A stretch of 64,000 nt of DNA from Heliocybe sulcata (Eukaryota; Basidiomycota; Agaricomycetes; Gloeophyllales; Gloeophyllaceae): contig ML213510.1 of assembly GCA_004369045.1 (NCBI GenBank), positions 690,866 to 754,865 on the forward strand, given 5' to 3'. Positions 33,195 through 55,051 of the stretch are shown here, piece after piece (the stretch's first letter is position 1; the number at the start of each line of letters is the position of its first letter). A program made the position numbers and the translations under genes. Under the pieces are notes generated by a model. It was not told where the DNA came from, ran no database searches, and was given only the letters and a program-made list of their open reading frames with translations.

Positions 33195-33542
33195 GAAGTG
33201 TCTCGAAATATTGAGATCAAAGCGTCTGTCGATCTGGCGTGAGTAGCAAATGAGAGCAAGTGTGGCGGACGCCTCGAGCAGCTTAAGCGCCGAAGCCACT
33301 CCTAGCTAGGGCGCCATGAGCCGCAAACAAAGTCAAACTTTGTGCATGTATTAACATGGTTGATAATACAGGGCCTGATATACTGGAACTGATCATAAAG
33401 CACGAGGGGAGTATACTGATGATATACAGGTCCTGCGAAGTTAGGAGTTGATATTGATATGACTGTCATACTAGAACGTAGTAGACAAACGCCGTCGCGA
33501 CATGAGGTGGTACACCTGGGACAGCAAGACTGTACCCTGCCG
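33195..33542. other. Intergenic region between F-box and helicase genes
   Basis: Both neighbours are on the minus strand, so it contains the F-box promoter and the helicase 3' UTR. No gene seen, and I find no clear similarity to the DNA just past the + helicase copy at 55052-55374. The duplication border therefore lies close to the stop codons. Confidence 0.4.
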
Positions 33543-36500
33543 TCATATCTCTTCAGCAAATCCGTATTCGTCGTCCATCACGAGCTCTGGAAGAGGCTTG
33601 CGCTTCGGGGGCGCCTTGGGTTGGACTATTCCTTTGTAAGCGAGCCGTGCATCCTTCTCGCAACTCTCGATCCCGCCGCCGGGCATCCTCTCGTCTCTGA
33701 TATACCCAAGGATTGTCTTAATGTCTGAAACGTGCTTGACGAGCTTAGAAACGTCGGCCGCCGCATGTAGACTAGACTTCGGCTGCAAGAGTTTCTGCAA
33801 CTCTACGACCCGCTTGAACACGTAGCTATGTGATGCTTGGTATCAGCGTAGTCCTCCGGGTCCGGCCATCTTTGGGGCTTACCTGAAATTCGTAGTGCGG
33901 TTCATCGCTTCGTCCAATTCCTGGTGTTGTGCGTGCCTCAACTTTTTCTTCGCCTTGTCCTTCCCCGATGAAGCGTAAGAATACAGCGATTCGAGGCAAA
34001 TCAGTGCATGTACGAAGGGCCCGAGGAACATGGCTCTGTAGAGCTTGCTCGGCCAGTCGTTTGCACCCGCAACCTCGAGGCACAAGTTCCAAGTACGACC
34101 TATGGGTGTGTATGCGCTTGCCTTCAACGCGTGCTGACGCCGGCGGAAACGTCGAGCGGCGCCTTGGATGATGGTCGCTGCGCGATTGCGTCGTTGATCT
34201 CGGATGCGTCGAAATGCGGTCTGGATAACAGTAGCAGCTCGTATTTCTCGAGGAGCAGCAGCGACTTCACCAGGGTTCATTTCCAAAGCCTCTTCTACCT
34301 TGTCCGGAGCGACTTCATCGTGAATCTCATCCGCATCGACTGCATTACCGCCGTCACCAGGAACAGCGGCCGAGTTCTCTTTTTCTTCTCGTTCCTCCGC
34401 TATCTTGGGCTTGAAAACTTCGGCATTCGCTCGTAGTGGGGCCGGTTTGCTGGATGAGGATGATATAAGGAGCAGATGCCGGATGTCTTCTATATTACTG
34501 TAAATAACCCGATGCACGCCGGGGACTGTGCTCCGTGATGGCCGCTCCCGCTTAGCGTCATGAAGGAGGATTAGCAGGTCCGGATAACTCTGTACTGCGG
34601 GCATAGTGTTGAGAGGTCGCCGCACTGCCCTGGCCAGATCTTCCCATTTGGTCGCACGTATGAATCTGAGCAGCGGAATGAGAACGAGACATCGACTCCG
34701 CAGTTGGAAGGCCTTACCTATCGCATATAAGCGGGAACTTGTACCCGCTTTTCGCGAATGAGGTAATGTGTTCCCTGATCCTGTCCCTGAGCCTAGGGTC
34801 GTACACGTTGTACCCAACTTGCAGGATCACTAGTAAGTACGGCACCAAGCTATGGTATCTCGGGAGACGTACGCAAACACATGCACCAAAATCTAGGTGT
34901 CCCGCGGTGTAAGTCTGAGCGCAGGAATGGATAGGTTGTTCACCTACGTGCGAACCACGAATACGTTACGGACTTGACGACTGTGATGAGAGATGCTACG
35001 GCCCTCGAGATGAAGATGAGCTGACGCAGATAGTTAATGAACCATAGTTAATGAACCCTGACATAGATGCTCATGCAGGATGAACATACATCTCGGCCCC
35101 GGGAATAGCACAGCCTTCACCAGGCTAGCCATAGCATCGATGAGAGGCCACACACCACCAGTGGCTTTGTGCTGCATATCCTCCAGCACAGGTATAAGTC
35201 GCAGCAGCCAGGACCGAGGTAGAGCGACGCCGTGGAGAGTACGTTTGTTCCCGTTTTGGAAATTTCGGCATATGATGAGTGAACCGCACAAGCTTTCCAT
35301 CAGACCGCATAACAGATTGAGGTCTATCTGAACGTTCATCTCAGCCCCGTATCTAAGTTACAACGAGTCAGATTGCATGCTAACCAATGATGTAACAATA
35401 CCACACTCACCTGAGAAATGTAATACCCTTGCTTAACGAGTTGTCAGTCTTGCTCAGCAAGAAGAGGCAGAGATCCAGTGGCGCGAGAGACAACACCGAA
35501 CCACGGTTTACGAAAGACTGCACCGAAGGAGCGCGGACCATATTATCGTAGGCTTGCTCTCGATAGAGCATGAACCCCAGACAAGCAGTAAGGGCAAAGT
35601 TCATGATGAATTCATCCGGCAGAGTATATAGACTGGGCGAATAGAGATGATTTGCCAGCCAGAACTTCAATACTGCCAGGCCCCTGCTTGCCTCCGGTAC
35701 GCGCTGGAGGTCCAGACTTGCCAGGCTACCTAAGGCAGAATGCGGCGGATTAAGCGTGTCGTAGAGTCGGTGGACCCAAGTCCTGTCAAGAATAATGAGT
35801 TCGACAGTCCGGCCGATTAGTACCGGTCGCTTCACCTTTGTCTGCGTTCACGCTCCTCCGGCGATAGATAATGCTGGATTGCATGCAAGATTTGGATCTG
35901 TTGCAGATGCACGGCAGCTCGCAGATTATAGCAGTGGCCAGCGGTATCTAAGATTTCGCTGTGATCACGGGGACAACTGTCTCCGGCGCTACAACGTCCT
36001 GAACCGAACATTGCAATCACGACACAGGGACGCAGAGCCTTGACCTCCAGACAGCACTCGTTCTCTTGTAGTACAAGAGACAGGATGTACTTGGTCACTG
36101 ACTGTCTGTACAGCTCGGTGAACTCCGCCTCGGACAAGCGAAGCCCTTGGTCGCGAGGTGCAAGGAGCCGTATCTTCTTCTGAGGTGCGGTCTTGAAGAA
36201 GAATGTACCTTTGGGCAAAATAATTGCATGATCGCCCGCTTCGACCTCGAATCCAAAAAGCTTTCGGATGGTGATACTAGACCATGGACTTTCCTGCTCG
36301 CCTACTTGGCGCAAAAGCTCGACATAGGCATGGAAATGACGCAGAACGTCAATTGCCTGTTCAAGAGACGTGTTCGGAAGTAAGGGTCTGGCCTGCGCAA
36401 CGAAAATCCGAGAGAAGCAGAGGAGCGCTGCAGCTTTGCGGTCACGATTGCATAGCAGAAGCGCCATTTTCCGTAACCTAGCAATATCTTGTGAACCCAT

Positions 36501-39500
36501 GGCCTTGAACATATGCAACTGATCGTGTTCTTGTGAGGCTCGTGGTACTACGAGCAGATGGATGGACTTACTTCGTCGTCGGACTCGCATGCTCCGCCAA
36601 CTCCCTCGATCTGGTTCGTCCACTCCAGTAGTTGGTTAAGTGGAGGGTGGACCGTGTCTTCTGGACTGGGATCTCGTCCAAAAGCAAAAGCACGCCAGAA
36701 GCAGTCCACGAGGCATTCCTTCGCTCGCTGCACAGACAAGACACTACTCTGATCCTTCAGGAGCGCACGCATTCCATCGGAAATGCGGCCTTCCATCAGA
36801 TGGACTTCACCCGCCTCTGCAAATCTTTTCATGCTTTCTAGCACGTCGGCCCTGGCATCATCGAATCCAAATTCTTCCATGAAGTCTAGTTGCTCGTCGA
36901 CGGATCCAAAAAGCTCGGCAGCCTTCCTACGTTTTCAGAAATTCGTCAAGGCAGGCACGGCGATCAGCGTACGAGCGACATACCTCAATTTCTTCTTCTG
37001 AATGTAGAAGAGGCGTGCTGTCCTTACCACCTTGTCCTTCAATCGTAGGTCTACCTCTCTGCCTCGGACGACTTCTACTGCTTCATCGAACAAGCCAGCT
37101 TTGTGGTACTGATGAGCGGCGCGATCAAATTCTTCAGCATCGTAGAAGGCTTGGCCTGCGCTTCTATCGTCCCCTGCTTCGACAAAACAGTCTGCAGCGT
37201 GCCTCATATACCTGCGCTTCAGGTTCGCTCTGCTAGCAGCATTCCCAACAGCAGCGAAAGCATCTGCGGCTTCTTTGAACGACCGCGCACGAACTGACGG
37301 TTCGCCTGCGTTGGCCTTGGCACGCTCTCGCAGGTGGAATGCGTTTGCAATCGCATATTCCTGCGGCATATCTGCACGTTCGAAGCAATGCATGGCTTGG
37401 AAATAGCGGCGGTTGTCGAACAGGGTTCTGCCCGCTTTGGACCACTCCTCTTGGGTTGAGACAACCGCAAGCTGTGGAAGCTCCATTTCTGGCGTATATA
37501 TGTCGACCAAACCCTCGCTGCGCCAGAAAAGCTGGTAAGCAAGGTGAGCACAGCGTCGAGCAAATATGAGACTTCATTCGCAAACCTGCATAGGTTCTGC
37601 GCGCTCCGACGGGTCAAATATCCATAGATTATTACGGGCTCGGGTTATAGCGACGTATAGAAACTTCAGCTAAATGGACCACGGAGTCTCGTAAGAGGAA
37701 ATCGTATATACTACAAGAGATAATTACGCACCTCGCTACAGATGCCAGCGTGACGGATCTCATCGAATGCTGGGACGGAGGTTCTCATTGCATGCTGTCG
37801 GGAGACCGCATTCAGGACTACGCGCCATTGAGATAGGTCCGATGTCGAATCTGTGAAGAACTTATACAAGAGCACCTAGCGCACAGTTAGCCGGAGACAA
37901 TTACGAACCACGGGACTTACATCGTCGAACTCGAGCCCTTTACTCTCATACAAGGTCCTGGCAGCGGTACTCGTTAATACAACAATCTACGCTGGCCAAC
38001 GGACATCGCACATGATTAGTCCTATATCACCGACTTGTCCTCGTAGCTCATCCCGCGCAGCTTCGTTTCGTACCAGAATGCCTGCGTCCAATAGAGGTGA
38101 TTAGCCCTCCACTGCGGACAGTAGTAGCATGGAATAAGGTTACATTGTCTGGCACCAAATTCAATGCGAGCTTTCCTGGAATCACAGTCAGACACTGAAG
38201 TAGCAGATCTTATACGCAAACCACTCACGATTCGCCAAACAAGAATTGCTCATAGCGGACGGTATCTGAATCTGAGCTTCCGAAGAAGATCGGGCGAAGA
38301 CCTTCTACTATACCGCGTTCTTCATTCAATGCATCGATTGCATATGGCCAGAACTTTGTGATAAGCTCAACGACCGAGTGCGCGCACTTCACAATCCCTG
38401 CGTGAGATCGATAGTTCACTGTCAATTGGAACATCCGTGGCTGTCGTGGCGGCGAGTACGACGAGTGGGCATTGCTAGTTTGCTGGGGAATGCCTTAACG
38501 TAAGATACCGAGGTCGACGTAGTATAACTTACTTCCAGACGATAGAGAAATGCTTTCAAATCATTGAACTTGAAGGAACTCCCGACAGAAATCGTTTGTG
38601 CCGTATCCCCGGCCCAGAAAAGTCCATTTGGATTCTTGCAGATAGAACGCAGTACTGATGTTACCCACTAGTCAGTCATGTCTACGAGGCAAGGGTATTG
38701 GGCCTACGGTATGCGTCAATGAGGTGATTATCTTGTACCTCATCGACATAGCTGACAAGAGATCAGCCAGTTCCTTACTCGTTGCTAGAGGACTCACAGG
38801 AAATCTATTCTCCTACCAACCACAATGCTCCCTTCTGCGAGTCTCATTAATAGTGCATGTGTTCTTGTTAAGGTCGATAGTCAGGGCAGAGCAAGGTAGG
38901 TTAGAAGGCAGGCGTTACCTATCCACACTGTCAATCTCCTGCGTTTGTCTCCGTAACTTCTGGTAGCTCTCGAATATGCTATATATCAGGTCTCTTTGAC
39001 TTGCGAAAGTCGACTGCGCTCGGTGAGATACGGCATTGTAAGTCTGTCTATCCAGGCATCGACTTGTACAAGTCAGTGACTGTTCGGATCCCTTGATGAC
39101 GCCTGGCACGAAAAGGTGTTAGAATAAGAATGTGTATCCTGCGGGAATAGGCCGAGTACCCATTATCTCGTTGAAAACGAGTGCCGGGTCTGGCAAAAAG
39201 ACATGAGCGAGTGTATGCGAAGATGATCTCGTCCCTACCTAATCCTTTTGTCAAGCCTTGAGGTAAATGAGTCCAATACGATTGCCTGAACTTGTCGTAT
39301 GAGACGATCCGATCCGAAGTACTATGTGCTATTGCGAAATTGTCGTCATTTGTAGGGATGGTGTCCTTCGCAAAGGTTGATGTGAAAAATGAAGCCGAAC
39401 AATCAAGATCTCCTTCTAGCAGTTGACAAAGCTGCACGTAGATAAGTGCGAGTGTAGGCCGAGTCGTCAGTTGACTCCAAATCAGATAGGATGCTTACAT

Positions 39501-42069
39501 GCTCAAACGTGATGAACAAAGGAAAGTGATCATCTTCCAAGAGGCTGAACCTCTTGGGGAGATCTACTCTCCACTCAGGGTCGTCCTCGGGATCCATGAG
39601 ATCGTCCTCATTTATTGCAGGTTCGCCCGATGCGGCTTGGATCAGCTTCTTGGGTTCCTCCGTCGAGAGGGCAAGAGACTTTATCAGCTTCGAGAAATAT
39701 TCCTCTACCTTTGTTGCGAGGATCCGAGAACTGGTGACGAACACCTGACGTGGTTTAGACACAGAATGGCTACCATGCTCCCAGGATCGTTGGATGCCAA
39801 GCATCTTGAAAAGCATGGTGGTCGTTTTGCTGCATCACACTTTAGCATTGGTGATCTATTGCGCGTAACCATAGTGTCACAGCTTACCCTGTCCCACTTC
39901 GGCCAAGAACATAGCAGGACAACGGATGTTCAATGATCTCTCGCTCTTGAGGCCTGATGATATCGTGAAACCAACGCATCATAGAGTATGAACTAGCCAC
40001 GTACGAGACAGCGAAGACGTGAGCGACATCACGGTCCGCAAGGATGCCTAATAATCGATTCCTCGCACACCGGAAACACAGGAATGATGTATCGGGTCCA
40101 CTCACTGTTCAGCAGCGCCTTGACATGGGGTAGTCAGTGCAGCTTCTACAGCGAAGGGGTAAGCGTACCTGAGACAGAGTCACGAACTTCTCTAGTCTAA
40201 AATCCGCTGCATGAGATATCTAACGACGGTCCACATTCGACACACGTACACTAGAAGCGAATGTATCTGTAGCATAAAGCGAGTTAGCACCGGGTCTCCG
40301 TTGTTAGCGTGGAAGCAACCTCTTGCAAGTACTGTCCCGGGATGCGGGGAACCACTTGAGCCGACTTGTCCGTCTCCTCGGTTTGCGGCGGAAAAGATGC
40401 TGGACTGATGACGTTGTCTCCGGTATGTACGGGCTTGTTCCGGAACGTACATCTGGATGAGTCAGAAAATACGAAAGCACCTTCCCAGAGGCAAACATAC
40501 CTCCTCTTGTATTCCTTTCCTTTGCACGCGAGCTGATGGCCTACATACTCCCAGAGCCGGTTGTCCATCTGGGCGTGAGTATATACGCCGAATACCTTGA
40601 TTACTAGCAACTGGAGTCAATGCCAAAAGCCGATAATCGTCGGCAGGCATAGACTAACCTTGGCGCTCAATCTACATACTCAAAGCATCAGCTAGGCACA
40701 GACTACGCCAATAGCAAGGACGTTCAGAATGATACACATACGTCACTATCAAACTCGGCGAGGCAGTCGATTTGGTACTATGGCTTACGCGTGAGGACTA
40801 ACCACTCAATACAGAAACAATAGACGTACCACGAGCCGGAGGTCTCGTGTCATCTTCGCTTCGTAAATTGGAATGTCCAGGTTAGGACCCGTAAGACGCT
40901 TCTGATTGTCGTCTGAGAAATGGCCCCTCGAGAGCTCTCTATAGCCAAATGTGAGCTAGCCATCGGTGCAGGGAAAGGAGCCGTTCGTACTGTATCTTCT
41001 TGACGATGATCTTAAAAGTCTTCAAATCCTTTCTTCGTGCTTCCCTCAAGTCACGGTCCGCTCGTGTGGATATGAATATATGCCAGTCTCCGAGGCCCTC
41101 GGCGCTCTCGAAATACAGCGCAGCTTTCATAGGTTGCACAATCGGGTAAGCCGACGGAGCAGGGGCTTCTTCTGATGTGTTCGCGACATCGTCAGTGTTA
41201 CCGGCTTCAGAAGCGTAACTGCTGTCAGCGACTCCCGCGGGATCCAATTGTTCGTTATACAACTTCTGGAGATGCTCGGCGAGACCGGGTCGGCGGAGGA
41301 TGGTCAAGTAATACTAAGCAGGCAGATTACAAGATGAAGATGGTACACACACAAGTTAGGTATTTGAAACGGGCTTACCGCTAACAACCCCTTTTGATCT
41401 TTCATAATGTCTTGACCTAGATGCTCCGCATCTTGAGGCGTCGTCGGTGCGTCGACGCCAAGGTTACGGAACACGGTCTCGTCATTGGTACTCTTACCAC
41501 CCTTCTTACTCCTTTTCTTCTGTCGCTGTGATTTCTGCTTCGTTTTTATCACAAAGGCTAGGTCATCTTCGTCCTCGTCCGGGTCTGGACCGACGGCGTC
41601 GCCAAAGACCAGCGTAGGAAGAGCTTCGAGAACCGGCTTGGACAACTCAACAGAGCGCCGGCATTCAGACAAGTTGCTCGGAACGTCGAAGTCCGGAGGG
41701 TATTTCAAGAAGAGGAGTGAAAGAGACAAGTGCGATAGCAGTTTTGACTGCAAGGACTCAGCGAAGCGCGCGGGCTTGTCCGTAAAGCTCTCTTGTAGCT
41801 TTCGATTCAAGAACGAGAAAAGGTCTTCACTTGCAGCTAGAAGTGACAATGGTCGGGAAACGGCTGAGAGTAGGCCTGAACCCCTTACCCGATATAAACA
41901 ATTGTAGGACACTGGGCTGAGAGAGCAATTGGGTTATGTATCGTTCGAAACTGCCCTGGTTCATCCATATGCCTCGTTCAAGCTGATCTATGGTGTCCCA
42001 AATGCGAGGAGATTTCCAGCAGTCGGGTTCCATGAAAGCTGAGTCTCCCGTAGCGAATCTGGCAGCCAT
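33543..42069 (-). CDS. TRANK1-like giant superfamily 1 helicase protein, minus copy
   Basis: A many-exon gene of about 2000 codons. It starts MAARFATGDSAFMEPDCWKS (homologous start in the other copy). The UvrD-like helicase core has Walker A GRSGTGKTTTMLFK with an intron between GRSGTG and KTTT (39884-39823), NYRSHAGIVKCAHSVVELIT (about 38360-38430), and motif VI LKFLYVAITRARNNLWIFDP (about 37620-37680). TPR-like helical repeats follow (36935-37510), then a CCCH finger of spacing C-x10-C-x5-C-x3-H near 35950-36020. Two IQ motifs, AATVIQTAFRRIRDQRR and AATIIQGAARRFRRRQ, lie at 34140-34240. The C-terminus is FKRVVELQKLLQPKSS to DDEYGFAEEI. Fungal relatives are called TRANK1-like; function is unknown, with nucleic-acid unwinding and calmodulin binding as inferences. 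No break is seen. Confidence 0.82.
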
Positions 42070-42164
42070 CGTGCGCAAAATGATTGTTGAGTGAGTTCGG
42101 TCGGCTAGAACACAGAGCGTCGTAATGTAAGCAAGAGAGTTGAGAGAGTTTTGTCTACGTCCTT

Positions 42165-42238
42165 GAGGAATACTATATATGATTCGCAGAACAAACGAGG
42201 CCAAAGCGTGCTCGTTCGTGAAAGGAGAAGCTAGAACC
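42165..42238 (-). promoter_or_regulatory. Core promoter of helicase minus copy, conserved in the paralog
   Basis: Read on the minus strand, this block starts ggttctagcttctccttt and includes ggcctcgtttgttctgcg and a TATA box in catatatagta (42182-42172), about 105 bp before the start codon. The + copy has nearly the same block at 46397-46470 with the TATA box at the same offset. Conservation of non-coding DNA alongside diverged coding DNA suggests regulatory function. Confidence 0.7.
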
Positions 42239-42350
42239 ACAGTTCACCGCGTAGAAGTTGCGCGGAGCCTCGGAATTTTCCGGCTTAGCGCTTAGCCCAT
42301 ATAGCCCGGGACTCACGTCAATTAATACCATGTTCAGGGTAGCCGGTGTG

Positions 42351-42485
42351 TATTAGAGTGTATCTGCACTGGTAATTACTACAGGTGGAGTCGCTCAATA
42401 AGGAAATTTCGAAGGATTTTTGCGACGTGATTGGCTGGGAGCCGCTCCACGCTGTAGGAATTACCACAGCAGATACACTCTATTG
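42351..42485. repeat. MITE-like palindromic element with about 47-bp inverted arms
   Basis: The left arm (42351-42396: tattagagtgtatctgcact, ggtaattactacaggtggag) and right arm (42439-42485) are imperfect reverse complements over about 47 bp. The runs agtgtatctgc, ggtaatt and cctacag/ctacag are shared, and a loop of about 42 bp carries no open frame. It could form a long hairpin. Miniature inverted-repeat transposable elements have this shape. No clear target-site duplication is visible. The matching interval near the + helicase lacks it. Confidence 0.65.
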
Positions 42486-42633
42486 ATCCAGATACTCACT
42501 AATTTCGCGGACCGCGACTTCATTAACCGAATGCATGCCTCAGACAGAACAATCTATGCGCAGGTCCTAATTATTGGGCAAACTGGAGGCGCCACAGGAG
42601 GAGGTTGAGCGCCTACTCTTACAAGAAAAGTTT

Positions 42634-45600
42634 CTATTCCTCTTTTACCTTTCCTCCTCCAGAGAGATCCGGCAAAGTGGCCGCAACCTCATCGATCTTC
42701 CTAAACTGCCACGGGAATCGGGACGGGTACAAGAAGGGCCGCAAGTCGAAACCTGCAGTTCATCAGCTACAGCTCCGGCCGCAACACACCGAAACTCACG
42801 ATTATCATCGGGACTGTATTGCTCCTAATGCATTTCTCAGCCCAGATGGCGGTAAGATCACTGTATATACGCACCGCATGGTAGGCAGGCGTGATAGTCG
42901 TCATCTTGTGCCTATTCCTGGCATACTCGAAGAAGAACAATTTCACCTTCTCCGCAATCTAAAGTGGCATATGAATAAGATCGCGGCTGCGGAACCTAGT
43001 AGAGGCGTACTTGGGTGGGAGACAAGAACGAGCCCCAGTCGTGCACGAGTTTCGTGAACGTGCTGTAAGGTCCGCATTTCTCCACCTTACGGAGCTTGCC
43101 AAAGATAGACAGCTCGTCGTAGGTCATGCCCATGTCCGCCTATCGCGATTCCGGTGAATAGCAAAAAGTCTTCGAGCGTCACACTACACTGACCTCATCG
43201 GACTGGACATAGGTTTCCGTGATCGGTTCCAGCTCCGCCGTCGGCGTGGCATCAAGAAACCTGGAAGAAGTCTGAGCTCAGACTCCCGAAGTTTCGATGA
43301 GGCTTACTTGGTCAGTATAGGAAGGTCAAACTTGTCTCGAGCGTAGGCAATAAACTTCTTCAGATCGGTCTTACTAATACCTCCGATAGGGTTCACGTCG
43401 GCTGGTGGACACGTGTAAGCACTAGATGTCCGATCAGAGCCTAGATTCCTTACCAGAGGAACAATCATATTTTGTAAGGTATCCTCGGAGACTGTGATAG
43501 GCATGAATCACTGCAAAAATGCAAGGGAGGCTCCATCGCACCTTTCATCCACATTCGCGCTCCCAAGGACAAGGAGCCCACCATACTTCCCTCTAACCCA
43601 CGGCAAGAGCTGCGCAAAAAGGTAGGCGAGAACCATGCGCAGCCGGGCCTGCCATCAATGAATATGGAATTCTTCCCTCTGTCCTCTCTATCCACTCACC
43701 TGAATGTTCTGTAAAGCCAAGTTCTCCGCGTCCGATCCTCCTTGCACTCGGAACCGCGGCTTCACACCTGTGACAAATCCGAAGAGGTCCCGAACAGAGG
43801 TCACAATAGTGTCCATGTTCAGATCGACGTGGTAGCTACTGGACATGAGCCCCAGATCCAGCACACAACTGTGCGGACCAGCACTCACCCCCCAATAGCT
43901 TTGGACAGTTCTTTAGCCCGTGACCGCGTTTCGATGCTGGAATTCTCGGTGCCCATGTAGCAAGTATGGAAGATCCTCTTGCAGAACTCCATTGGGTCGG
44001 TAGGAAGATACTTAGAGTCCGGCGGCTCGCCCGACATACGTCGTGCATCCTCGATGACTTGCTTATCTTCAGATACAAAACTAGTCAATACTGCGGTAAC
44101 ACGGGCTCGGAACCTCACTTACTTCCGTTGCGGGCAGCCTCTACAACAAGGCGGCACATGGAATACGTGATAACAGCAGTCGCACAACTATCGATACCGC
44201 CACTCAGAGGAATGAAGTACCCTACCGCACGAGAGCGACGCAGATAATCCCAAAGCCAGCACGCAGGACCGAGGCTACTCGCCATGAGCCCATATCACTG
44301 CAGCAGATTGGGAAACATACGCGATTTCCTCCTCCGGAAGATGGTACCTCGGCTCCAAATGCTTCCTCAAGCTGGGATCATGCACTTCGCTCCAGTGCTT
44401 ATTGGATAGTGCGAATGGCACCTCGACGCGGTGGTACCTCTCTGCCGCGGCAGCCTGCATGCTACGACTGCTCCTTGCCCTATGCGCGCGCACGTCCTCA
44501 AGGTCAACCGTAGCCGATACAACTTCGACCTCTTGCAACGAGAACTGCGATCCTTGAGCCACCAGCTGGCCATTGACCGCAATCATGGCGCAGCCGTCGT
44601 AGTAGAGACGATCACCGTCGCAGCCCTGCTGATTGGCGTACAAGTAAATGCCGCCAAGTTTTAGAGTCGCTTCTTTGATCAATTCAACGCGGGTGTATAG
44701 CTTCCGAAGTTCGTGGTGGCTTCCGCTCGAGTTGGTGAAGATCTCAACGCCGTCGAGACCCATTAGAATGTGAGGACTGTACGTGTTGTTAGACTCTGTA
44801 TAGTCGGACGACTGGGTGACGTTACCTCGCGGGAGTGAACAGTTCCTCGCACAATTCTACGCCTATGCAAGTGTCCTGAGTACTGACAACGGCGTCGCCG
44901 AAGGGCACCTTGACCTGAAAGAAAGCATGTAAATAACACACTGACGATGACGTTATTGTCAAGGACCTGTTCGGTGATCTTCTGTATCATCCTTGGTAAA
45001 TAATGGTCCTCCCATTGATGATGTTTGGTCCACGGCGTAAAATAGCGGAGTTCGCGATAGTTTCCGTCGTTTGCAAGCCACATTTTCGGACGAATGAGTA
45101 GGATCTTACGGTCATGAATGATGATGCGACAGTTGTATATGACGTTCTTGTGCACAACAGGCCTGTTGCCTTAAGTCTTGGACGAATCCAGCCTAGCAAA
45201 GAGGGATACACGCACATTCCAATATCGCACACAATTCCATCAGTTTCATCGGATTCTAGGATCTTGGCAAGAACCTCCCATGAATGGAGAATCGTGTCTC
45301 CTGTCGATGGATTATCATGAATTGTTGGTCCCAATGCGAGTAGACTTGCCTTCTAGGAAATGATCATAGCACCCGTAGCCTCTACCAGATTAGCAATATA
45401 TCTTGCAGACGAGGCGTTGAGACCTACGGGATTTCCAGCTCCGGACCGACGCGGAGGGTAGCTCCGCGCTCTTTCGCGATAGTAATGGACTTTATGATAC
45501 GCTCATAGTTGCCCTGTGTATAGTGACAGTTTAACGCCTCTCGAGAGTACATTATGAATACTACTTGCCTGAAAGTCCAAGGCCCACTGGTTCAGGGAAC

Positions 45601-45738
45601 TATATGGTTACGCAAGACGTTGAACGACTTGGGACATTTTGACTGCTGATTTCCTTACCAGCTAGTGAGAGGCCGTCAGATTTCCCTCGCGGTGAAAGAA
45701 AGCGTGGCTTACGTGGCAATGGTAATGAGATGGCCCAT
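42634..45738 (-). CDS. QNS1: Glutamine-dependent NAD+ synthetase
   Basis: It converts nicotinic acid adenine dinucleotide to NAD+ using ATP and glutamine. The start is [20 protein letters not shown]. The N-terminal nitrilase-like glutaminase has its triad in GPELEIPGYGCYDH (Glu), [15 protein letters not shown] (Lys) and [15 protein letters not shown] (Cys). The synthetase domain has the PP-loop [14 protein letters not shown], then [20 protein letters not shown], the [20 protein letters not shown] block, [20 protein letters not shown] and a C-terminus [20 protein letters not shown]. It has about ten introns. The second has a GC donor, cag|gcaagt (about 45569), paired with a normal acceptor. 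It lies between the two inverted helicase copies; its 3' end is the part that was partly duplicated. Confidence 0.92.
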
Positions 45739-45877
45739 CCCTGCCTCGTAGTCTCAGAACCAAATGCAAAGTGCAAAAGTGCAGTAAGTACTCCCGCTTA
45801 TCAGTTCGGACGAGCAGACAATATCGACAATCTCACACACGTCATATAATGAATACCGGCCAGATCCACTCAGATCT
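45739..45877 (-). promoter_or_regulatory. NAD synthetase leader and proximal promoter
   Basis: The short space between the NAD synthetase start and the duplicated segment must hold its leader. It has no open frame of note. Candidate TATA elements on the minus strand are cattatatgacg near 45838-45850 and catataaggg at 45911-45919. Confidence 0.4.
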
Positions 45878-45911
45878 GCCACAAACCCGCCACAAGCCCC
45901 GCCACAAACCC
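45878..45911. repeat. Three tandem copies of gccacaaaccc
   Basis: The unit occurs as gccacaaaccc, gccacaagcccc and gccacaaaccc without gaps. It sits directly upstream of a TATA-like element of the NAD synthetase gene (minus orientation) and at the border of the duplicated segment. A binding-site array or a junction-associated repeat are both possible. Confidence 0.6.
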
Positions 45912-45913
45912 TT

Positions 45914-46183
45914 ATATGACAAACTGTCACGCATGGTGCGGTGCGTATATTAATTCTTACTACCATATCTTGCTGAAGAGTGCTACAGGAGCAATATTCA
46001 GTCCCGATGATAATCGCAGGTTAATATTAAGGCCCGCATCCCTTGGATCACAATTTGCGGCCCTCTTGCACCCGTCGGCCGTCGCGTCTCCCGTGGCACT
46101 CAGGAAGCACGAGGAAGTTACAGCCAATTGTTTGGAAGAGGGAGGGCAAATGAGGAAGTACTAGAAACCTTCTTGTGAGGGCA
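45914..46183 (+). pseudogene. Decayed 3'-terminal fragment of the NAD synthetase gene
   Basis: On the plus strand this matches the last exons and introns of the minus-strand NAD synthetase (42620-42900) in order. Shared pieces include atgacaaactgtcacgc for MTTITP, gcggtgcgtatat at the donor of the penultimate intron, cagtcccgatgataatcg for the SPDDNR exon, ttgcggcccttcttg-like and cccgtggca-like pieces for LRPFLY...PWQ, and the stop region ctagaaaccttcttgt. Small insertions and deletions break the frame and the donor after SPDDNR is lost, so it cannot encode protein. It lies upstream of the + helicase exactly where the intact 3' end lies upstream of the - helicase. Confidence 0.8.
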
Positions 46184-46396
46184 GATGTTCGATCCGCGTG
46201 AGTCCATCTTCAAATTCTCGTGTCCCGCCTCCCGTGTACTTGATAATTAGAATAGGACCCAGACGATCCTCTCGATGAATGTGAACCTGCCCTGAGCGTA
46301 TCGACGTAAGTCCTGCTCGTTAGAGCACAGAGCCGGAAAGCCCGGTACTTCGAGCTGCGCGGCGTGCGCCTTTCATTCGAACGGTGACTGAGATAT

Positions 46397-46470
46397 GGTT
46401 CTAGGTTCTCCTTTCATGAACGCGCACGCGCTGGCCTCGTTTGCTCCACGAATTATATATAGTCCTCCGA
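46397..46470 (+). promoter_or_regulatory. Core promoter of helicase plus copy, conserved in the paralog
   Basis: The block starts ggttctaggttctccttt, includes ggcctcgtttgctccacg, and has a TATA box in aattatatatagtcc about 100 bp before the ATG. It aligns base for base with the block at 42165-42238 upstream of the - copy, with only scattered changes. An outer part beginning agccggaaa (near 46336) is weakly conserved as well. Confidence 0.7.
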
Positions 46471-46559
46471 CAAGACATTATAGATAAGCCCGTCACAGCC
46501 CTCTTGCCTGCATTCCGACGCGCTTTGTTCTAGTCGACTGCACTCAACAAACTCCTGTA

Positions 46560-49500
46560 ATGGCTACCGCACTCACTTCCGAGGCAGAAGAGAGACGTCT
46601 CATCGAACGCGACAGCTGGTCTCGCGATCGCATCGCGGATACAGTGGATTGGTTCGAGCAACGGTTTATGATCAACAAGAGCAGTTTCGAGCCATGCGTG
46701 ACGCTTCTGCTCTCCGAAGCTCACGTTCTAGAACTATTCCTTTCAGGTAGGGTATCCCCGAGCCGATGAATGTCTTGGCTTTATTCAACCCTCATCATTT
46801 TTAGCCGCCAGTAATGATTTTATCTCATTCTTCTGCAAGAGAATTCAAGAGAACTTCCCCGAGAAACCAGAACACTTTAGCACTTCCATACAGTCAAATC
46901 TTTTGGCTCATTTATCCCTTGCGTTACTCTTTCTCGACTATCCTGCAGGTTTTGACGTTCCAAGCAACCTCTCCGACTGCCGGCGGTCTGTCGAGTTATC
47001 AAAGCCGGTCCTCGAAGCTCTTCCAACCCTTGCTTTTCGCGATGAGCCGGTGGACCAAGGTGCCAGAGAAGACGATCCCTTTGTCCCGATAAGAACAAAA
47101 CAAAAGTCCCAGCGACAACAGAAAAGGAGCAGACAGCACGGTAAGACCAATAGTGATGATAGTGTATTTCGTATTCTGGGCGTCGATGCTCCGAATACCC
47201 CTCAGGACGCGGAGAAGCTCGGTCGTGACATCCTGGAAGAACAGAAGGAGATATTGTCGGTGAGTCGGCCTCAGAGAGCTGGTTCCGGCATCTTCCTGAC
47301 ACCATTATTCGTATCTTCCTCCTTTAGTACTACTTGACCATCCTCCGCCGACCAGGTCTCGCGGAGCATCTGCAGAAGGTATACGAGGAGAAGCTGCGCT
47401 TTGTCGACGGCGCTCATCATAGTCACCAATCTGCGCGCGACAATGCTGACGAAGCAGTAAACACATCAGACGAATCCTCTACCCCGTCAGCCTATCCGAT
47501 TATTCAACCCATGAGAGCTGCGCTTTATTTCGAAAGCGCCAAGGGCCTTGGGGATTGGCACATCTTAGTATCTTCTCGAGCAGACCGCGACTTGAGAGGC
47601 GCTCGCAGGAAGGACGCGAAGACTTTTAGGATTATCATGAAGAAGATACAGTAGGGTCATCTTCTTCGTCTAAGACGATGATTAACTCGCGTTTCGCTGC
47701 AGTGAGCTTTCGAGGGGCCATTTCTCAGACGACAACCAGAAACGCCTCACGGGCACTAATCTAGAAATCCCAATATACGAAGCGAAGATGACGCGAGATT
47801 CGCGCTTGGTGGTAAGTCCATGACTCCTGTCCTGCGTAGTCAATGTTCCGAAAGAAGCTTTAGTACCAGATTGACTGCATCCCTGAGTTCGACAGCGACG
47901 TAAGTGTGCATGTAGAGCGACCAAAGTTTATGTGCGTATGTCTGACAAACTCGCGTGTAGATTGAACGCCAAGGTCAATTTATCCCCGCTATCACGCCTA
48001 AATATTTGGTGCTAAGCTGGTACTCAGTCATCAAATTATTCGGCGTATATACGCACGCCGATATCAAGAAGAATAGCTTCTGGGAGGCCGTGGGACACCA
48101 GCTTGCTGGCAAAGGAAGAGAGTACAGAAGAAGGTAGGCTCGCATGTCATGTATGCATATTCGATACTTCCTGACAGGCTCAGATGTACCTTCCGAAATA
48201 AACCCATACATGCCGGAGACAATGTGATTGCCCCTGCGTCGTTCCCGCCGCAGAGGGAACCTGTCATCGGAGCTGATTCCTCTCAAGTGGTACCCCGCAT
48301 CCCGGGCGAGTATCTGCAAGAGGTAGCTTTGGATCGTCATACTGTGCGTTCTCTTGCTGACCTGCTCTTGGTCAGATTCACTCCCTCTTAGTGTACGTGT
48401 ATGGACTGACCTCCCGGGGCTCTTCTAACGTTGTAACGCAGATTGGAGAAGTTTGTGACTCTATCCCAGGTGCGTCCCGCTTTCAGTGATCTGATGATAG
48501 AGTATTAACTCATTCGCTGCAAGGCTCTTCTTAATAGTAGGTTTGTATATACGCACGCGAAATCATCCTGACGCATGTGTGTCAGGTATTCTCGCCGACC
48601 GCGACGTCGCTCATGTTTTCGCTGTTTCGTGCGTCTTCTATTTATATCCCGTAGTCAGAGACATCTTACAATATCAACACAGGCCCCAGGAGCGCGAGAT
48701 CATCGAGTATCCGTTATCTTGCTATGTCATCGGTCGAAGTGGGACGGGGTAAGTCCGCGTTCCTAGGCGCGCAGTTTGATACCAACGGTTTTGCAGCAAA
48801 ACGACCACCATGCTTTTCAAGATGCTTGGCATCCAACGATCCTGGGAGCATGGTAGTCATTCTGTGCCTAAACCACGTCAGGTTTTCGTTACCCGCTCGA
48901 GAGTGCTCGCGAGCAAAGTGGAGCAATACTTCGAGAAGCTGATGAAGTCCCTTGTCCTATCGACTCAGGACCCGAAGATGCTTGCGCAAGGTGTAGAGGA
49001 TGAGCATCAAGTTCAGGACGACGACCTTGTGGATAGCGACGACGACACGGAGTGGAGAGTTGACCTCCCTAAACGGTTTAGTCTCCTGGAAGACCATCAT
49101 TTCCCGCTATTTATTACATTTGATCATGTAAGTGCGAAATCGCCGTTACTTGAGCCGTTAACCAAAGTTCTCATTTGTATGGGAAGCTATGCTGTATGCT
49201 GGAAGGAGATCTCAGTGTCTCAACTTCCCGAAGTAGCGCATTGTCACCGGCGGATGATGCCCAGACCAATGGTGAAAGGCTAGAAGATGTCGAACTGGGC
49301 AAGACCGCATCCCATCTGGTCTTGTACGAGAAATTCCTGGAGTCTTACTGGCCTCATATGCCGCAATTTTTGACAAAGGGATTGGGTACGTGCGCAGGCA
49401 CTATATCAGTGAAACCTACTCTCATACTGTGACAGATCCCTCCCTCGTTTTCAGTGAGATCATGGGTAACTTATTCATGCCCTGGGTAGCTGTGCTACTG

Positions 49501-52500
49501 ACGACGCTCGTGTCCTAGGTGTCATCAAAGGATCGGAGCAGTCACTCAAGTTCCAAAGTTGCTGTTTGGATCGGGAGGCATATAATGCCGTATCTCACCG
49601 TTCGCAATCGACCTTTGCAAGCCAGCGCGATCTCATTTATAGCATCTTCGAGAACTATCAGAGTCTGAGAAGCCAACGACGGGAGCTTGACAATGTCGAT
49701 AGGTAGTGTGACTCCACTTCTCGTATTCTGATGCACCCTTATCAGGTCCCTCAACAAGGACGCATGATCTCATAGTGAAACTAGCCACGGAGAGCCGTGC
49801 GATAGGCGAGAAATTCGATTTCCTGTGAGGTGCTTGATTTCTTCGGGGTGAATTGCAGCTGAATATGCCCCAGCTATGTCGATGAAGTCCAAGACAATAA
49901 CCTTATTGACGCACACTGTATGTCATTTTATATAAACTACTGACGGGCTTACGAACGGTGATAGTGCTGAGGTCTCTGTGCAAGAATCCGAATGGATTAT
50001 TCTGGGCTGGTGATACGGCACAGACTATCTCAGTAGGGAGCTCTTTTAAATTCAACGATCTAAAAGCATTTCTCCATCGCCTTGAGGTAGGCATGCACTT
50101 GCTTCACATGAATTCTGCTCAAACATGAGGCAAAAGCGAAATGCTGATCCGGAACCCAAGTCGCGCTCTACCTCATTAACCCCTGAGCCCCGGACATTCC
50201 ACTTGGCGGTCAACTACCGCTCTCATGCGGGGATCGTGAAGTGCGCACATTCCGTTGTTCGGCTCATTACTAGGTTCTGGCCGTATGCTATCGATGTGCT
50301 GGGCGAAGAAAGAGGCATAGTTGAAGGTCTGCGGCCCGTGTTCTTCGGCAGCTCCCAATCAGACACTGTCCGCTATGAGCAGTTTCTATTCGGGGAATCG
50401 TAAGCGCTCTCAAATCTCCTTATGCTATTGCTGACGCGGACTTTAGGGGACATCGGATAGATTTTGGGGCGCGGCAGTGTATGTGTTTGTCTGCACGGTG
50501 CTCATCTTCGGGCAGAGACTGACCACTTTCGCAACAGGCATTCTTGTTCGCAATGAAGCCGCCAGGGACGAATTACGCAAAGAAGTAGGGCAAATAGGTC
50601 TGATTATGTAAGCTCATCATCTTTGCAGTGTAGGGCTGCAGAGTCGACCGCTTCGATTTAGGACACTATATGAAAGTAAAGGCTTAGAATTCGACGATGT
50701 AAGTGCTATATACCGTAAGAATATGCAGTTAACTCTGTTTGTAGGTCCTGTTGTACAACTTCTTCAAGGATTCGACGTCAGACTTTTCTCAATGGCGAGT
50801 AGTACTGAACGCTATGGTTGAAAGTCAAGGAGAGCACATCTCTGTCCCTTCCTTCGATGAAGTGCGGCATGCTAGTATCTGTAGCGAGGTATGCAAGAGA
50901 TATCGGGGCCGTATATGAACTGACTGATCGGTAATCTCGTTGCAGCTCAAATTCCTGTATGTTGCGATCACTCGCGCTCGTAACAATCTTTGGATATTTG
51001 ATCCCTCAAAACAAGCAGAACCTATGAAGGTATGGACACACGATGTGTCCCTGTGCGAGACTGTGCTCACTGGTATTCTAGCATTTGTGGTCTAGGGAAG
51101 GCTTGATTGACACTTACACCCCGAAAATGGAGCTTCCCCAGCTCGCCGTCGATTCCAGTTCAGAGGAGTGGAGACAAGCAGGCAGGAGCTTGTTTGAAAA
51201 CCGTCGCTATTTTCAGGCGATGCATTGCTTCAAGCGAGCACGCATGCGTCACGAAGCGGCTATTTCCAACGCTTTCTACCTTCGCGATTGCGCTAGATCC
51301 GTGCAGTCGAATTTGCCATCGCGCTCCAAGGCCTTCATGCTGGCTGCGGAGGCTTTCTGCGACGTGGCTTCCAGTTCGGGAAAAGACCATATCAAGAGAA
51401 TCTACATGAGGAACGCCGCCAATTGTTATCTACAAGGAGGGGACGACGAACGAGCAGCCAAAGCCTTCTACGATGCCGAGGAATTCACACTTGCTGCGCG
51501 GCAATATCACAAAGCGGGTCTGGTTGACGACGCAATCAGAGTTGTGCGTGATACCGAGGTCGAACAGGAGGTAGCAGAGAGAGTTGTCCTGACAGCTCGT
51601 TTATTCTACTTCCAGCAAAAGGAAATCAAGTGAGTACTATAGACTTGAGGAGATACATTGCATGCGCATCAATGACCGGGTCCTTCAGGAAAGCCGTCGA
51701 CCTTTTTGATTCGTCGAAAGAGGAGCTCCGCTTCATGGAAGATTATGGCTTCGACGACACAAGAGCTGACATCTTGGAAAGTATGGGAAGATTCGTAGAA
51801 GCAGGAGAAGTTCATCTTGCTGCGGGTAGACTTACCGATGGAATCAAGGTATTGCTCAAAGCTCCTAGCGACAGAGGTGCCGTCCAGCGAGCGAAAGACT
51901 GCTTGCTAGACTGCTTCTGGGACACCTTCTCTCTTGATCGAGACCATGGCGAGGAAGAGCAGCATTCAAGTTCACTGGAACAGTTGCTGCGCTGGGCTGC
52001 TGATCTTGAACATCTGACTGGTGCGAGCGATGATGAAGTGAGTGTTTTCCTCATCTGCATGAAGAACGACTAAATCGACGATCGCGCGCAGATCAGTATG
52101 TTTAAGGCCATCGCATCCCGTGATATCACCTCTCTCAAGCAGCTGGGACGTGCTCTGTGCTGCGCTGATCGAAAGGCAGCCGCACTGCTGTGCTATACTC
52201 ACGTATTCAAGCAAGGTGCATGGGTGCAGACTGCATCCTTGACTGACGCCAGTGCTCTAGTGGATCACTTCACCATCTATACGGGACTACTTCACGATAT
52301 GAGCGCTCATTCAGATCCATGCTCTGATAGCTCTATTCGCAGACTCTTCGGATTTCGGGTCGAACCGCAACACTCAGTCCTTTTACCTCGACGATCCTTC
52401 CTCTTTAGTTCTGTCCCAGAGAGACTGTTGCGCACACTAGGCCCCGAAGACCCAGCGATCCGCATATCGCGGGGCCAGTTCCTCTATATCTACAGGCAAT

Positions 52501-55051
52501 CCTTGAGGGAACATATCTTGTCCCTGGTCCTGAAAGAAGACGACGCTTGCCGGGATCTGCGAGTACTCCGTCCATGTCTCGTCTTTACTACTTTCGGCCG
52601 TTGCAGAGACCAATGCCCCAGAGGTCACTTCTCTGGCGCAGAACTAAGCGCCGAAGCTTACAACCTCCGAGTTCGCTTGCACCTACAGCAGATCCTGCTG
52701 CTGGGGTCCCTGTACCTAGTGCCATTCAGCCGTAGAGAGCGGTGGCAAAGGTACGTCGCTCAGAGATAGCCCTGGTTCATGCGAGTCTCATCGTAACCCC
52801 ATTTACAGGATGTGGCTTCAGCGACTTTACGAGGCGCTACATCCATCGCACCCTTTGTTAGGACATATCTCAGATTTGGATCTTTCACGAGTGCCCGAAG
52901 CAAGCGATGCTGTGCGGACATTGAAACGCTGGCTGCACGGCTACTCATTCCCTATCAAGCTTGAAAATATACGGGACGGTTTCCTCGCCAATTTCACGGT
53001 AGCAGCAAGCCTGGGCTTTCTATTCGACGGTGAACGAGCGGTGCAATACGTCCTGCGAGCACCCTGCGTGATCTCGTACAGGGAGGCATCATCGTCGCAA
53101 GTCCCCGTCTATGTAGCCAAGTTCCTGGAGACCTCTGATCCCTATTCGCTATCGGCGGGAATTTTCTTTCTACGGTGCGCTTTGCGTTCATCAATATCAC
53201 AGATTTGTCCTGAGTCGATTCCTCAGGGATGCGGCCAAGCGGACCTTCCGCATGGATATTGGGATACTATGTCAGATCATGGAAGAGCTCTGCGGCGCCC
53301 TGGTGCTGTGCCGCAATTACCAGAATGTTAGCGGACACGTGTGGTTGCAAATGCACATTCGCATGAAAAATATCAGTAATAACGACCGCCATACCTTGCA
53401 TGGCACTATGCTCCCTCAGACATGGCTGCAGACTCTGTTGGAACGACTGGATTGGCAGAAGATGTCAGAAAAGGATACTCGTCACCTGTGGGTTTTCAGC
53501 GACGCTATGGCTAGCATCTTGAAGGATGTCAAGTTCCCTGATGCCCAATGTGCGCCTCACTTCAGACTTACTCTGTTATCGCCGTCGCTCATGGATTGCC
53601 CTAGCGCAACTGATGTTTGAAGGTCGAAGCCTCTCGGAGCGTGGTGGCCTTATTCAGAATGCTTTTGTTCTTCGCATGTGAGCTCTTTACCTTGCTTCCG
53701 TGCATGATGTCAGACTAACTCGAAACAAGATGTCGATGCATGTGTCTGCGTAAGTGGCATGCAGTATCTCTGTGTGCATGAATTTACGCAACTGCTCCGT
53801 TCCAGTTGGCTACAACATCTTAGACTCTCGGCTGAGAACTAAGATCTTGGAGAGCATTGTCTCGCTGAAGAAGCCCGATTGGATGCCACCCGCTCTATGT
53901 GCAAAGTATGATTCCCGATTCCTTCGCGCTCTTTGTCTTATTGCTTGTTCTAGGTACATCAACGCTACTAGTTGGAGTGACTTATCGTTCGCGGTGCGAC
54001 AACGAAGCAGTAACTTGCACGCAGCAGATTCCGCTGCCAACAAGCTAATTCAACTGCATGATGCCCGGAAGGAGCTGCCGCTCGGGCGCATTCCCAGAGG
54101 TGTACATAAGGTTGTCTACAAAAGCATGGACGACCTTCCTCGACTATTTGCTACAAGCTCAAAGTCTAACGAAAGACGAGCCTTGGAACCCGTCGCCGAG
54201 GCTTGCGAGACGAGGTTAGCGGCCGTTCCAGTGCCTGAAGTGACACTAGAACAGATCAGCGAGGACATGGAACCTCAGGGCGGGACAGACCTTCCTGAGG
54301 ATATTGCACCAGACACAGTGGAGGAAATCGTCGAAGTAGATCAGAAGATGGTTGACGAAGCACTACCGGTCTTTACCTCTGCCACGGACCGAGAGATTCA
54401 GGCCGCGGCCGTGATCCAGTCCGCCTATCGGCGTGTTCACCGTCGTCGGACGGCGTTGGAGGCCAGCTTGAACACTCGCGATGGCCGTTGGTGGAAAGCT
54501 TGTATGGACGTTGCGAGGACTGTTCAATGGCCGAATTCCTACTACAAATGCGTCTTCTTGGGCCCGCTAGTGCATGGTTTGGTTTGCCTTGACATCCTCT
54601 ATTCATATGCATCAGCAGGGATAGAGAAGACGAAGAAGAGACTCAAAGAAGCGCAGTACCAGGAGCTCGAGGAGACTGGCAATCGGCTTACGCAGTTCAA
54701 GTGCGTGTATATCGTGTATCGTGTATTAGATGTGCTTACATAGGTCACAGCGACGTGCTCAAGCGCGTCAATCAATTACAGACGCAGCTGCACCCAAATT
54801 CAGATCTGCACAAGCGTTGCGAAATGCCCCTGCTTATTGCCGGAATATCGGACATTCAGCAAGTTGTGCGCGACATTCGCGAACAGCGCATGCCGCTAAA
54901 CAATATCGAAGATTGCCAGAATGAGCTCGATCTCGCTGTTGGGTGGATAGTGAAGCGTAAGCGACCGACAGTGCGCAAGCCCCTCCCGCAGGTGGTGTTG
55001 GATGATCCTAATTCCGATTTCTATGATGTGTCGAGTTTTGAAGAAGTATGA
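46560..55051 (+). CDS. TRANK1-like giant superfamily 1 helicase protein, plus copy
   Basis: Paralog of the 33543-42069 gene with the same start region (MATALTSEAEERRLIERDSW), domain order and many of the same intron sites. Walker A GRSGTGKTTTMLFK is again split by an intron after GRSGTG (48751-48797). NYRSHAGIVKCAHSVVRLIT is at about 50210-50270 and LKFLYVAITRARNNLWIFDP at about 50947-51006. TPR-like repeats cover 51085-51633, including RNAANCYLQGGDDERAAKAF. The CCCH finger has spacing C-x8-C-x3-C-x3-H near 52575-52626. One IQ motif, AAAVIQSAYRRVHRRR, lies at about 54405-54450, where the - copy has two. The C-terminus is VLDDPNSDFYDVSSFEEV. All recognisable motifs are present, so it appears functional. 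Confidence 0.82.

What the first reader, a model, noticed from the sequence alone, without database searches (positions are those of the whole stretch)
33543..55051. Inverted head-to-head duplication of giant TRANK1-like helicase genes around NAD synthetase
Two ~8.5-kb genes with the same domain order, matching start regions and shared intron sites lie on opposite strands, with the NAD synthetase gene between them. An inverted repeat of such size with a unique ~3-kb centre is unusual in a compact fungal genome and could promote inversion of the NAD synthetase segment or gene conversion between copies. Both copies look intact, so both may be under selection.
Basis: partly seen in the sequence, partly recalled or inferred. 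Interest (0 to 1): 0.78.

Follow-up and report, generated by a model that had tools for sequence, protein, structure and literature searches.

The report
Old inverted pair of giant helicases
A fungal-looking chromosome carries two intact-looking, mirror-image copies of a giant helicase gene on either side of an NAD synthetase gene; they come from one old inverted duplication, and the protein is built like a little-known bacterial helicase that may start with a domain resembling an RNA-cutting toxin.

Summary
Two ~8.5-kb genes, A (42069-33543, -) and B (46560-55051, +), stand head to head around an NAD synthetase (45738-42634, -). Guided by each other they give 36 exons each, 35 of 35 shared introns and 58.6% identity over 2159 residues; unguided models share 22 introns of 28 and 27. 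No third copy was found.

So the duplicated unit was 'NAD synthetase tail + helicase', A holds the original place, and chance adjacency is very unlikely. Silent sites are near saturation, yet 65 bp over Walker A are identical (0 of 20,000 permutations): probable gene conversion. (2) The protein aligns collinearly (hhalign E 2.7e-42, 694 columns) with cyanobacterial RelE-like+UvrD+TPR helicases. The N-domain match itself is weak. An RNA-directed surveillance or defence helicase is my inference.

'TRANK1' homology was untested and no ankyrin repeats were found. Fungal synteny, inversion and the RelE fold remain unproven.

The parts
33543..42069 (-). Gene A, giant SF1 helicase, 36 exons, 2197 aa; ATG at 42069, TGA ends at 33543
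   Evidence: partner-guided model; introns GT-AG
46560..55051 (+). Gene B, inverted paralogue, 36 exons, 2208 aa
42634..45738 (-). Glutamine-dependent NAD synthetase, the only copy one search found in the genome
   Evidence: Pfam CN_hydrolase and NAD_synthase. Start 45738 chosen by eye; the script scored the ATG at 45552 higher
45929..46180 (+). Broken copy of the NAD synthetase 3' end (last exons and intron 12), upstream of B in the same relative order as NAD synthetase upstream of A
   Evidence: blastn 76% over 83 columns, E 7e-10 (45937-46016), and 67% over 138 columns, E 2e-5 (46055-46179), collinear; global alignment z 9.6, 0 of 300 shuffles; intron 13 alone shows no similarity
42070..42309 (-). 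A promoter/5' leader, alignable with 46316-46559 before B
   Evidence: 160 of 230 aligned columns identical, z 16.5, 0 of 300 shuffles
46316..46559 (+). B promoter/5' leader
40527..41121 (-). A: RelE/ParE-like N-domain (tentative), residues 278-399, introns included
   Evidence: PF05016 E 0.12, behind PF22756 at E 0.024; hhalign to the cyanobacterial N-domain E 0.0025, probability 12%, 0 of 300 shuffles; coordinates
47520..48107 (+). B: RelE/ParE-like N-domain (tentative), residues 279-401
   Evidence: 82% identical to A there; no Pfam hit of its own; HMMER -1.3 bits to the bacterial profile
37607..39952 (-). A: SF1/UvrD helicase core, motifs present
   Evidence: PF00580, PF13361 over cut-off; motif scan
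48684..51008 (+). B: SF1/UvrD helicase core, motifs present
   Evidence: PF00580, PF13361 over cut-off on the unrefined model
36785..37453 (-). A: post-helicase TPR-like region
   Evidence: collinear with the bacterial TPR start; PF07719 E 1.0 only
51160..51830 (+). B: post-helicase TPR-like region
39770..39834 (-). 65-bp stretch over Walker A identical to 48792-48856: probable gene-conversion patch
48792..48856 (+). B end of the identical 65-bp stretch
35961..36026 (-). A: CCCH-type cysteine/histidine motif (B: 52575-52628)
   Evidence: pattern; PF00642 E 0.56 only
34134..34238 (-). A: two IQ-like motifs; B keeps one (54402-54449)
   Evidence: pattern scan; PF00612 E 4.5 only
42354..42482 (.). 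MITE-like hairpin element in the A promoter, without counterpart in the B promoter

Best explanation
An old segmental duplication copied one block, the last part of NAD synthetase plus the complete helicase gene downstream of it, and set the copy in inverted orientation on the other side of NAD synthetase. A stands in the original place; B is the copy, and the copied NAD synthetase tail decayed into a relict in front of B (shown: relict, collinearity, one NAD synthetase found; inferred: the recombination route). Both helicases stayed functional under purifying selection while their C-terminal halves diverged most, and short patches, above all 65 bp over Walker A, were probably homogenised later by gene conversion. 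The protein is a probable RelE-like domain + SF1/UvrD helicase + TPR-like repeats with a long C-terminal extension, collinear with cyanobacterial helicases of the same layout (shown by profile alignment, strongly for helicase and linker, weakly for the N-domain, whose fold is not shown). Most likely it loads on RNA or RNA/DNA hybrids, the TPR and C-terminal parts recognise partners, and the RelE-like domain cuts or grips RNA, for surveillance or defence (inferred).
For: Inverted collinear DNA; 35 of 35 introns shared when guided, 22 of 28/27 unguided; 24 of 24 ORF pairs join the two genes; NAD synthetase relict; one NAD synthetase found; no third copy found. NG86 dN 0.323, dS 2.71. Longest identical codon run 20, 0 of 20,000 permutations; fourfold identity 72/150 N-terminal against 63/229 C-terminal, Fisher p 7e-5, patch excluded. 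hhalign of A+B with 10 cyanobacterial proteins E 2.7e-42 over 694 columns; the fungal profile scores 19.9-122.5 bits on 22 of 36 target rows, all of the class with a RelE-like N-domain (rows redundant), and at most 8.6 bits on the 12 other rows printed.
Against: The relict is still about 70% identical to NAD synthetase although silent sites of A/B are nearly saturated, so plain neutral decay does not fit; conversion or retained function must be added. Its intron 13 shows no similarity (z -0.3) and the spacer little (z 2.9). The RelE-like assignment is below every Pfam cut-off; for A an unrelated model scored better (PF22756 E 0.024 against PF05016 0.12) and B gave nothing; other hhalign runs of the N-domain were weaker (E 0.17; E 0.078 with set II); HMMER put B's N-domain at -1.3 bits; PDB searches found no relative. 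In one search ordinary cyanobacterial UvrD rows also scored 139-169 bits, close to the fungal 180-187, so that direction is not class-specific. Both AlphaFold models were poor. Exon models were refined with the partner copy. dS is saturated.
Confidence: 0.7

Rival explanations
1. A whole NAD synthetase + helicase block was duplicated as a palindrome, and one of the two head-to-head NAD synthetase genes was later deleted except for its tail.
For: Gives the same relict and the same order.
Against: blastn of the NAD synthetase gene against 45741-46600 listed only the two 3'-end pieces up to E 1; a larger old duplicate could have decayed beyond detection.
Confidence: 0.3
2. Two unrelated ancient paralogues came together by chance.
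For: High divergence (dS near saturation).
Against: The copied NAD synthetase tail lies before B, and the 5' leaders are alignable; no other member was found in the genome.
Confidence: 0.02
3. The 65-bp identity over Walker A and the better conserved N-terminal part reflect selection on the nucleotide sequence (splicing or regulatory signals), not gene conversion.
For: The patch starts 5 bases before an exon boundary and its amino acids are fully conserved. The N-terminal excess of fourfold identity is spread over several exons, not one tract; helicase and C-terminal parts do not differ (p 0.22).
Against: 20 consecutive identical codons, 0 of 20,000 permutations that keep amino acids; introns 3 and 4, with the highest z of the 35 introns (6.2, 4.2), lie in the N-terminal part.
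Confidence: 0.25
4. The N-terminal domain is not RelE-like but an unrelated alpha/beta domain.
For: All Pfam matches are below cut-offs, an unrelated model scored better on A, two of six bacterial N-domains matched nothing, and the structure models failed.
Against: Weak matches to several RelE-superfamily models (HigB, YoeB, Gp49, ParE_like, ParE_toxin) in different proteins; 0 of 300 shuffles reach the score (best shuffle 24.7 against 26.0); of 41 windows along A/B only three, all overlapping the domain, reached 25.9.
Confidence: 0.25

Closest known systems
Cyanobacterial 'UvrD-helicase domain-containing protein' with N-terminal RelE-like domain and TPR (WP_146297469.1, Euhalothece plasmid pEu1; WP_015205634.1, Crinalium plasmid; Trichodesmium/Okeania/Hydrocoleum loci L050-L056)
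   Same: Order N-domain, UvrD core with a shared inserted segment, 'W...G...Y.QA..CF' linker, TPR; hhalign E 2.7e-42 over 694 columns
   Different: Most complete-looking ORFs 860-1430 aa; no CCCH/IQ-like C-terminal extension looked for or noticed; about 26% identity; bacterial
TRANK1 (tetratricopeptide and ankyrin repeat containing 1) of vertebrates
   Same: By name and recall: giant protein with UvrD-type helicase and TPR
   Different: No TRANK1 sequence was available here, so homology is untested; no ankyrin repeats listed in A or B
Inverted paralogue pairs homogenised by gene conversion (recalled examples: Y-chromosome palindromes)
   Same: Head-to-head copies with a local patch of unusual identity
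   Different: Arms here are 65-74% identical, with only a short patch
GajB, PcrA and RecB-type UvrD helicases
   Same: SF1 motifs; PADLOC GajB E 5.6e-12, 43 bits, NCBIfam PcrA 40 bits
   Different: The fungal profile scores at most 8.6 bits on cyanobacterial UvrD rows of another N-terminal class; in the opposite direction the separation is small

Membership tests
SF1 (UvrD/Rep-type) helicases | Motifs I-VI of the UvrD core | tested here: met
   GRSGTGKTT, YVDEVQD, AGDTAQTIS, VNYRSH, YESKGLEFDD, YVAITRARNNLWIF in both copies (motif names recalled); Pfam over cut-off (A refined; B)
RelE-like + UvrD + TPR helicases of cyanobacteria | Collinear homology across helicase, linker and TPR start | tested here: met
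   hhalign E 2.7e-42; fungal profile separates this class from other UvrD rows
RelE-like + UvrD + TPR helicases of cyanobacteria | Homologous N-domain | tested here: inconclusive
   hhalign E 0.0025, probability 12%, 0 of 300 shuffles; but E 0.17 and 0.078 in other runs and -1.3 bits by HMMER for B
RelE/ParE toxin superfamily | Match over a family model's cut-off | tested here: not met
   Best fungal E 0.12, best bacterial E 0.0027, all below gathering scores
RelE/ParE toxin superfamily | RelE fold | tested here: inconclusive
   Low-confidence models; Foldseek no match at E <= 0.001, a RelK chain at rank 4 with E 0.24
RelE/ParE toxin superfamily | Ribonuclease activity | not testable with these tools
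   Needs biochemistry
TRANK1 family | Ankyrin repeats | tested here: not met
   No ankyrin model listed up to E 1 for the first models of A and B or up to E 10 for two parts of refined A
TRANK1 family | Sequence homology to vertebrate TRANK1 | not tested
   No TRANK1 sequence was at hand
Inverted segmental duplication | Shared non-genic or neighbouring-gene sequence at the duplicate edge | tested here: met
   NAD synthetase tail relict and 5' leader; nothing shared past the stop codons
Gene conversion between paralogues | Local identity far above the silent-site background | tested here: met
   proof needs related species, which were not available

The most novel reading that the evidence does not exclude
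The fungal giant helicases are eukaryotic descendants of a bacterial, partly plasmid-borne RelE-UvrD-TPR system, keep an RNA-acting RelE-type domain, and work as a paired RNA-targeting defence whose two mirror-image genes exchange sequence by gene conversion while their C-terminal sensor halves diversify.
Probability: 0.27. Interest if true: 0.75.

Novelty: new variant of a known kind. Interest (0 to 1): 0.45.

Why it matters
The relict NAD synthetase tail makes the history of a large inverted duplication readable from one genome. The match to cyanobacterial RelE-like UvrD-TPR helicases suggests a testable molecular activity (helicase-guided RNA cutting or binding) for a class of giant eukaryotic helicases. 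If vertebrate TRANK1 proves homologous, it would bear on a gene whose specific function in bipolar disorder one paper calls not clarified and which it describes as induced through type-I interferon signalling (PMC8278099, passages seen).

Tried and rejected
Third paralogue: the protein query (first 984 aa of the first B model) gave 23 matches, all in A or B (11 candidates scored); a DNA query gave A and B only. PF00580 gave four matches, on C20 and C6; it did not list A or B themselves, so a relative split by introns would escape it. tblastn of A/B on those regions gave nothing better than E 0.29. The direct repeat 35537/55090 is probably chance; no extended homology was seen past the stop codons. 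A first intron comparison with cheap gaps was uninformative and was replaced by a score-based one. Viral contigs: no relatives in three scans. The first genome-contig scan found nothing, the second 7 loci. PDB sequence searches with the N-domain found only chance-level hits or none. PHROGs gave an unknown-function family at E 0.005 for A only. Two AlphaFold models were poor and carry no weight. YN00 failed, so only NG86 is given.

Literature, one open-access library: TRANK1-like + fungi, TPR-and-ankyrin + basidiomycete, TRANK1 + UvrD + helicase, TRANK1 + RelE, and a six-term search on inverted repeats and gene conversion found 0 papers; UvrD + RelE + helicase + eukaryotic + fungi + conflict systems 3; UvrD + Agaricomycetes 1; RelE + UvrD + TPR + fused + cyanobacteria 2. 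Two broad searches held 3,457 and 80 papers, of which 12 each were listed. I saw passages of PMC3710099 and PMC8278099, and listings of the rest.

Full report
What is there. Gene A runs on the minus strand from ATG 42069 to TGA ending at 33543; gene B on the plus strand from ATG 46560 to TGA ending at 55051. A codon-usage/splice-site dynamic program, run on each alone, gave 28 and 27 introns with 22 identical in column and phase, and 56% identity over 2167 columns. Refining the discordant exons with the partner gave 36 exons each, 2197 and 2208 residues, 35 of 35 shared GT-AG introns and 58.6% identity over 2159 columns. The refinement leans towards sharing; the unguided count is the conservative one. 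The self-BLAST diagonal is inverted, collinear and interrupted. ORF-level self-comparison of the window lists 24 pairs at E <= 1e-4, all joining A and B. The neighbours differ: an F-box gene after A, acetyl-CoA carboxylase after B. The window lies at G000:C8:690866-754865 of a 31.63-Mb, 51-contig genome.

How it arose. Between the genes lies a glutamine-dependent NAD synthetase on the minus strand (CN_hydrolase E 5e-38, NAD_synthase E 7e-14), the only one found in the genome (12 matches, all at this gene, 5 candidates scored). Its 3' end lies upstream of A. Upstream of B, in the same relative order and orientation, is a broken copy of that 3' end: blastn 76% over 83 columns (E 7e-10, spanning intron 12) and 67% over 138 columns (E 2e-5), collinear. 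Over 42890-42634 against 45929-46180, 161 of 230 aligned columns are identical, z 9.6, 0 of 300 shuffles as good; piece by piece, exon 13 z 6.4, exon 14 z 5.7, intron 12 alone z 2.5 (2 of 300 shuffles), intron 13 z -0.3. The spacer aligns weakly (z 2.9) and the promoter/5' leader strongly (z 16.5). Past the stop codons no extended homology was seen. So the duplicated unit was NAD synthetase tail + helicase; the intron similarity points to a DNA-level copy, and A is in the original context. This makes chance assembly of unrelated paralogues very unlikely.

Age, selection and conversion. NG86 gives dN 0.323 and dS 2.71 overall; N-terminal 0.19/1.88, helicase 0.19/3.54, C-terminal 0.48/3.41; YN00 failed. 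Fourfold sites agree in 203 of 561 (0.25 expected at saturation), in the C-terminal part in 63 of 229. A copy decaying since the duplication would push pairwise dN/dS towards 0.5, so both look constrained, with the caveat of saturation. Against this background 65 bp over Walker A are identical (39834-39770 and 48792-48856), 20 codons in a row, reached by 0 of 20,000 permutations that keep amino acids; a search with the surrounding 121 bp found only A and B. Fourfold identity is higher in the N-terminal part (72/150) than in the C-terminal part (63/229, p 7e-5) and the helicase (56/167, p 0.012), patch excluded; helicase and C-terminal part do not differ (p 0.22). Introns 3 and 4 have the two highest z of 35 (6.2 and 4.2); the mean is 1.1. 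Gene conversion is the simplest reading; nucleotide-level constraint is the rival. Not explained: the relict keeps about 70% identity although silent sites are almost saturated, so it was either converted or is part of B's regulatory DNA. Inversion of the NAD synthetase segment could not be tested; the low arm identity makes it unlikely to be frequent.

What the protein is. The SF1 motifs are intact in both copies. A search of plasmid records with the N-terminal part of B found two weak hits (E 0.01 and 0.05), both over the helicase start and not the N-domain: cyanobacterial plasmid proteins of 962 and 1095 aa. Their first ~120 residues give weak matches to RelE-superfamily toxin models, followed by UvrD and weak TPR matches. 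Of six bacterial N-domains scanned alone, four matched HigB, YoeB, Gp49 or ParE_like at E 0.0027-0.089, none over the cut-off, beside two unrelated models at E 0.05 and 0.1; two matched nothing. Fungal copy A gives ParE_toxin at E 0.12 in the same place, behind an unrelated model (PF22756) at E 0.024; B gives none. A genome scan found 7 more loci, all cyanobacteria by title. In the phylum search 24 of 244 genomes have a match at E 1e-20 or better, 4 of them better than 1e-100; only 5 of the 28 matches listed begin inside the N-domain, the others mainly cover the helicase, and only the best candidates were scored. Of 39 loci read for ORFs, 6 gave none and 2 gave an ORF without a P-loop.

Test of homology. 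The A+B profile aligned to 10 of these proteins (several close relatives) at E 2.7e-42 over 694 columns, covering the N-domain, the helicase with a shared inserted segment, the linker and the TPR start. The N-domain alone gives E 0.0025 with probability 12%; 0 of 300 column-shuffled profiles reach its score (best 24.7 against 26.0), and of 41 windows along A/B only three, all overlapping the domain, reached 25.9. Other runs were weaker: E 0.17 with two sequences a side, E 0.078 with the more distant set. By HMMER the bacterial profile scores A and B at 187 and 180 bits, but B's N-domain at only -1.3 bits, and other cyanobacterial UvrD rows at 139-286 bits, those of another N-terminal class at 139-169, so this direction says little about class. 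In the reverse search 22 of 36 rows pass (19.9-122.5 bits), all of the class with a RelE-like N-domain (rows include duplicates and fragments; for L066, L067, L070, L072 and L073 the N-domain is called by alignment only). The 12 other rows printed score at most 8.6 bits; ten have another N-terminal part and two (L065, L069) are ORFs without a P-loop; two rows were not printed. Two structure predictions were too poor to use, so the RelE fold is not demonstrated.

Function. Proposed, not shown: an RNA-directed helicase whose RelE-like domain cuts or binds RNA, with TPR, CCCH-like and IQ-like parts (pattern-level evidence only) for partners and regulation. A shows two IQ-like motifs and B one, and the C-terminal halves diverged fastest, compatible with specialisation. 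TRANK1 is described as induced through type-I interferon signalling (PMC8278099, passages seen), which would fit a defence role if the families are homologous; that homology was not tested here, and no ankyrin repeats were listed for A/B.

Verdict. The locus itself is of moderate interest; the link to a bacterial RelE-UvrD-TPR class is the more novel part and did not appear in the listings (one open-access library; listings, and passages of two papers, only).

Noticed in passing
window 42354-42482; L026-L035: A ~133-bp hairpin MITE-like element with 31-nt arms and an apparent 3-bp ATT/AAT target duplication (judged by eye on six copies) sits in A's promoter but not B's; five other genomic copies are 91-94% identical, further ones more diverged.
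   Followed up: partly
L040:7519-9654 (own genome C6): A 711-residue open frame for another UvrD-like helicase, without tblastn similarity to A/B.
   Followed up: partly
window 55938-60248: Acetyl-CoA carboxylase gene (minus strand) lies directly beyond the 3' end of B.
   Followed up: no
window 31932-33305: F-box gene directly beyond the 3' end of A.
   Followed up: no
L074, L076-L084, L086 (L080 not seen in the printed rows): A second cyanobacterial UvrD class with a different N-terminal part of about 310-340 residues and at most 8.6 bits to the fungal profile.
   Followed up: partly
window 45929-46180 against 42890-42634: The NAD synthetase relict is more conserved than the saturated silent sites of A/B predict; conversion or regulatory constraint is needed.
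   Followed up: partly
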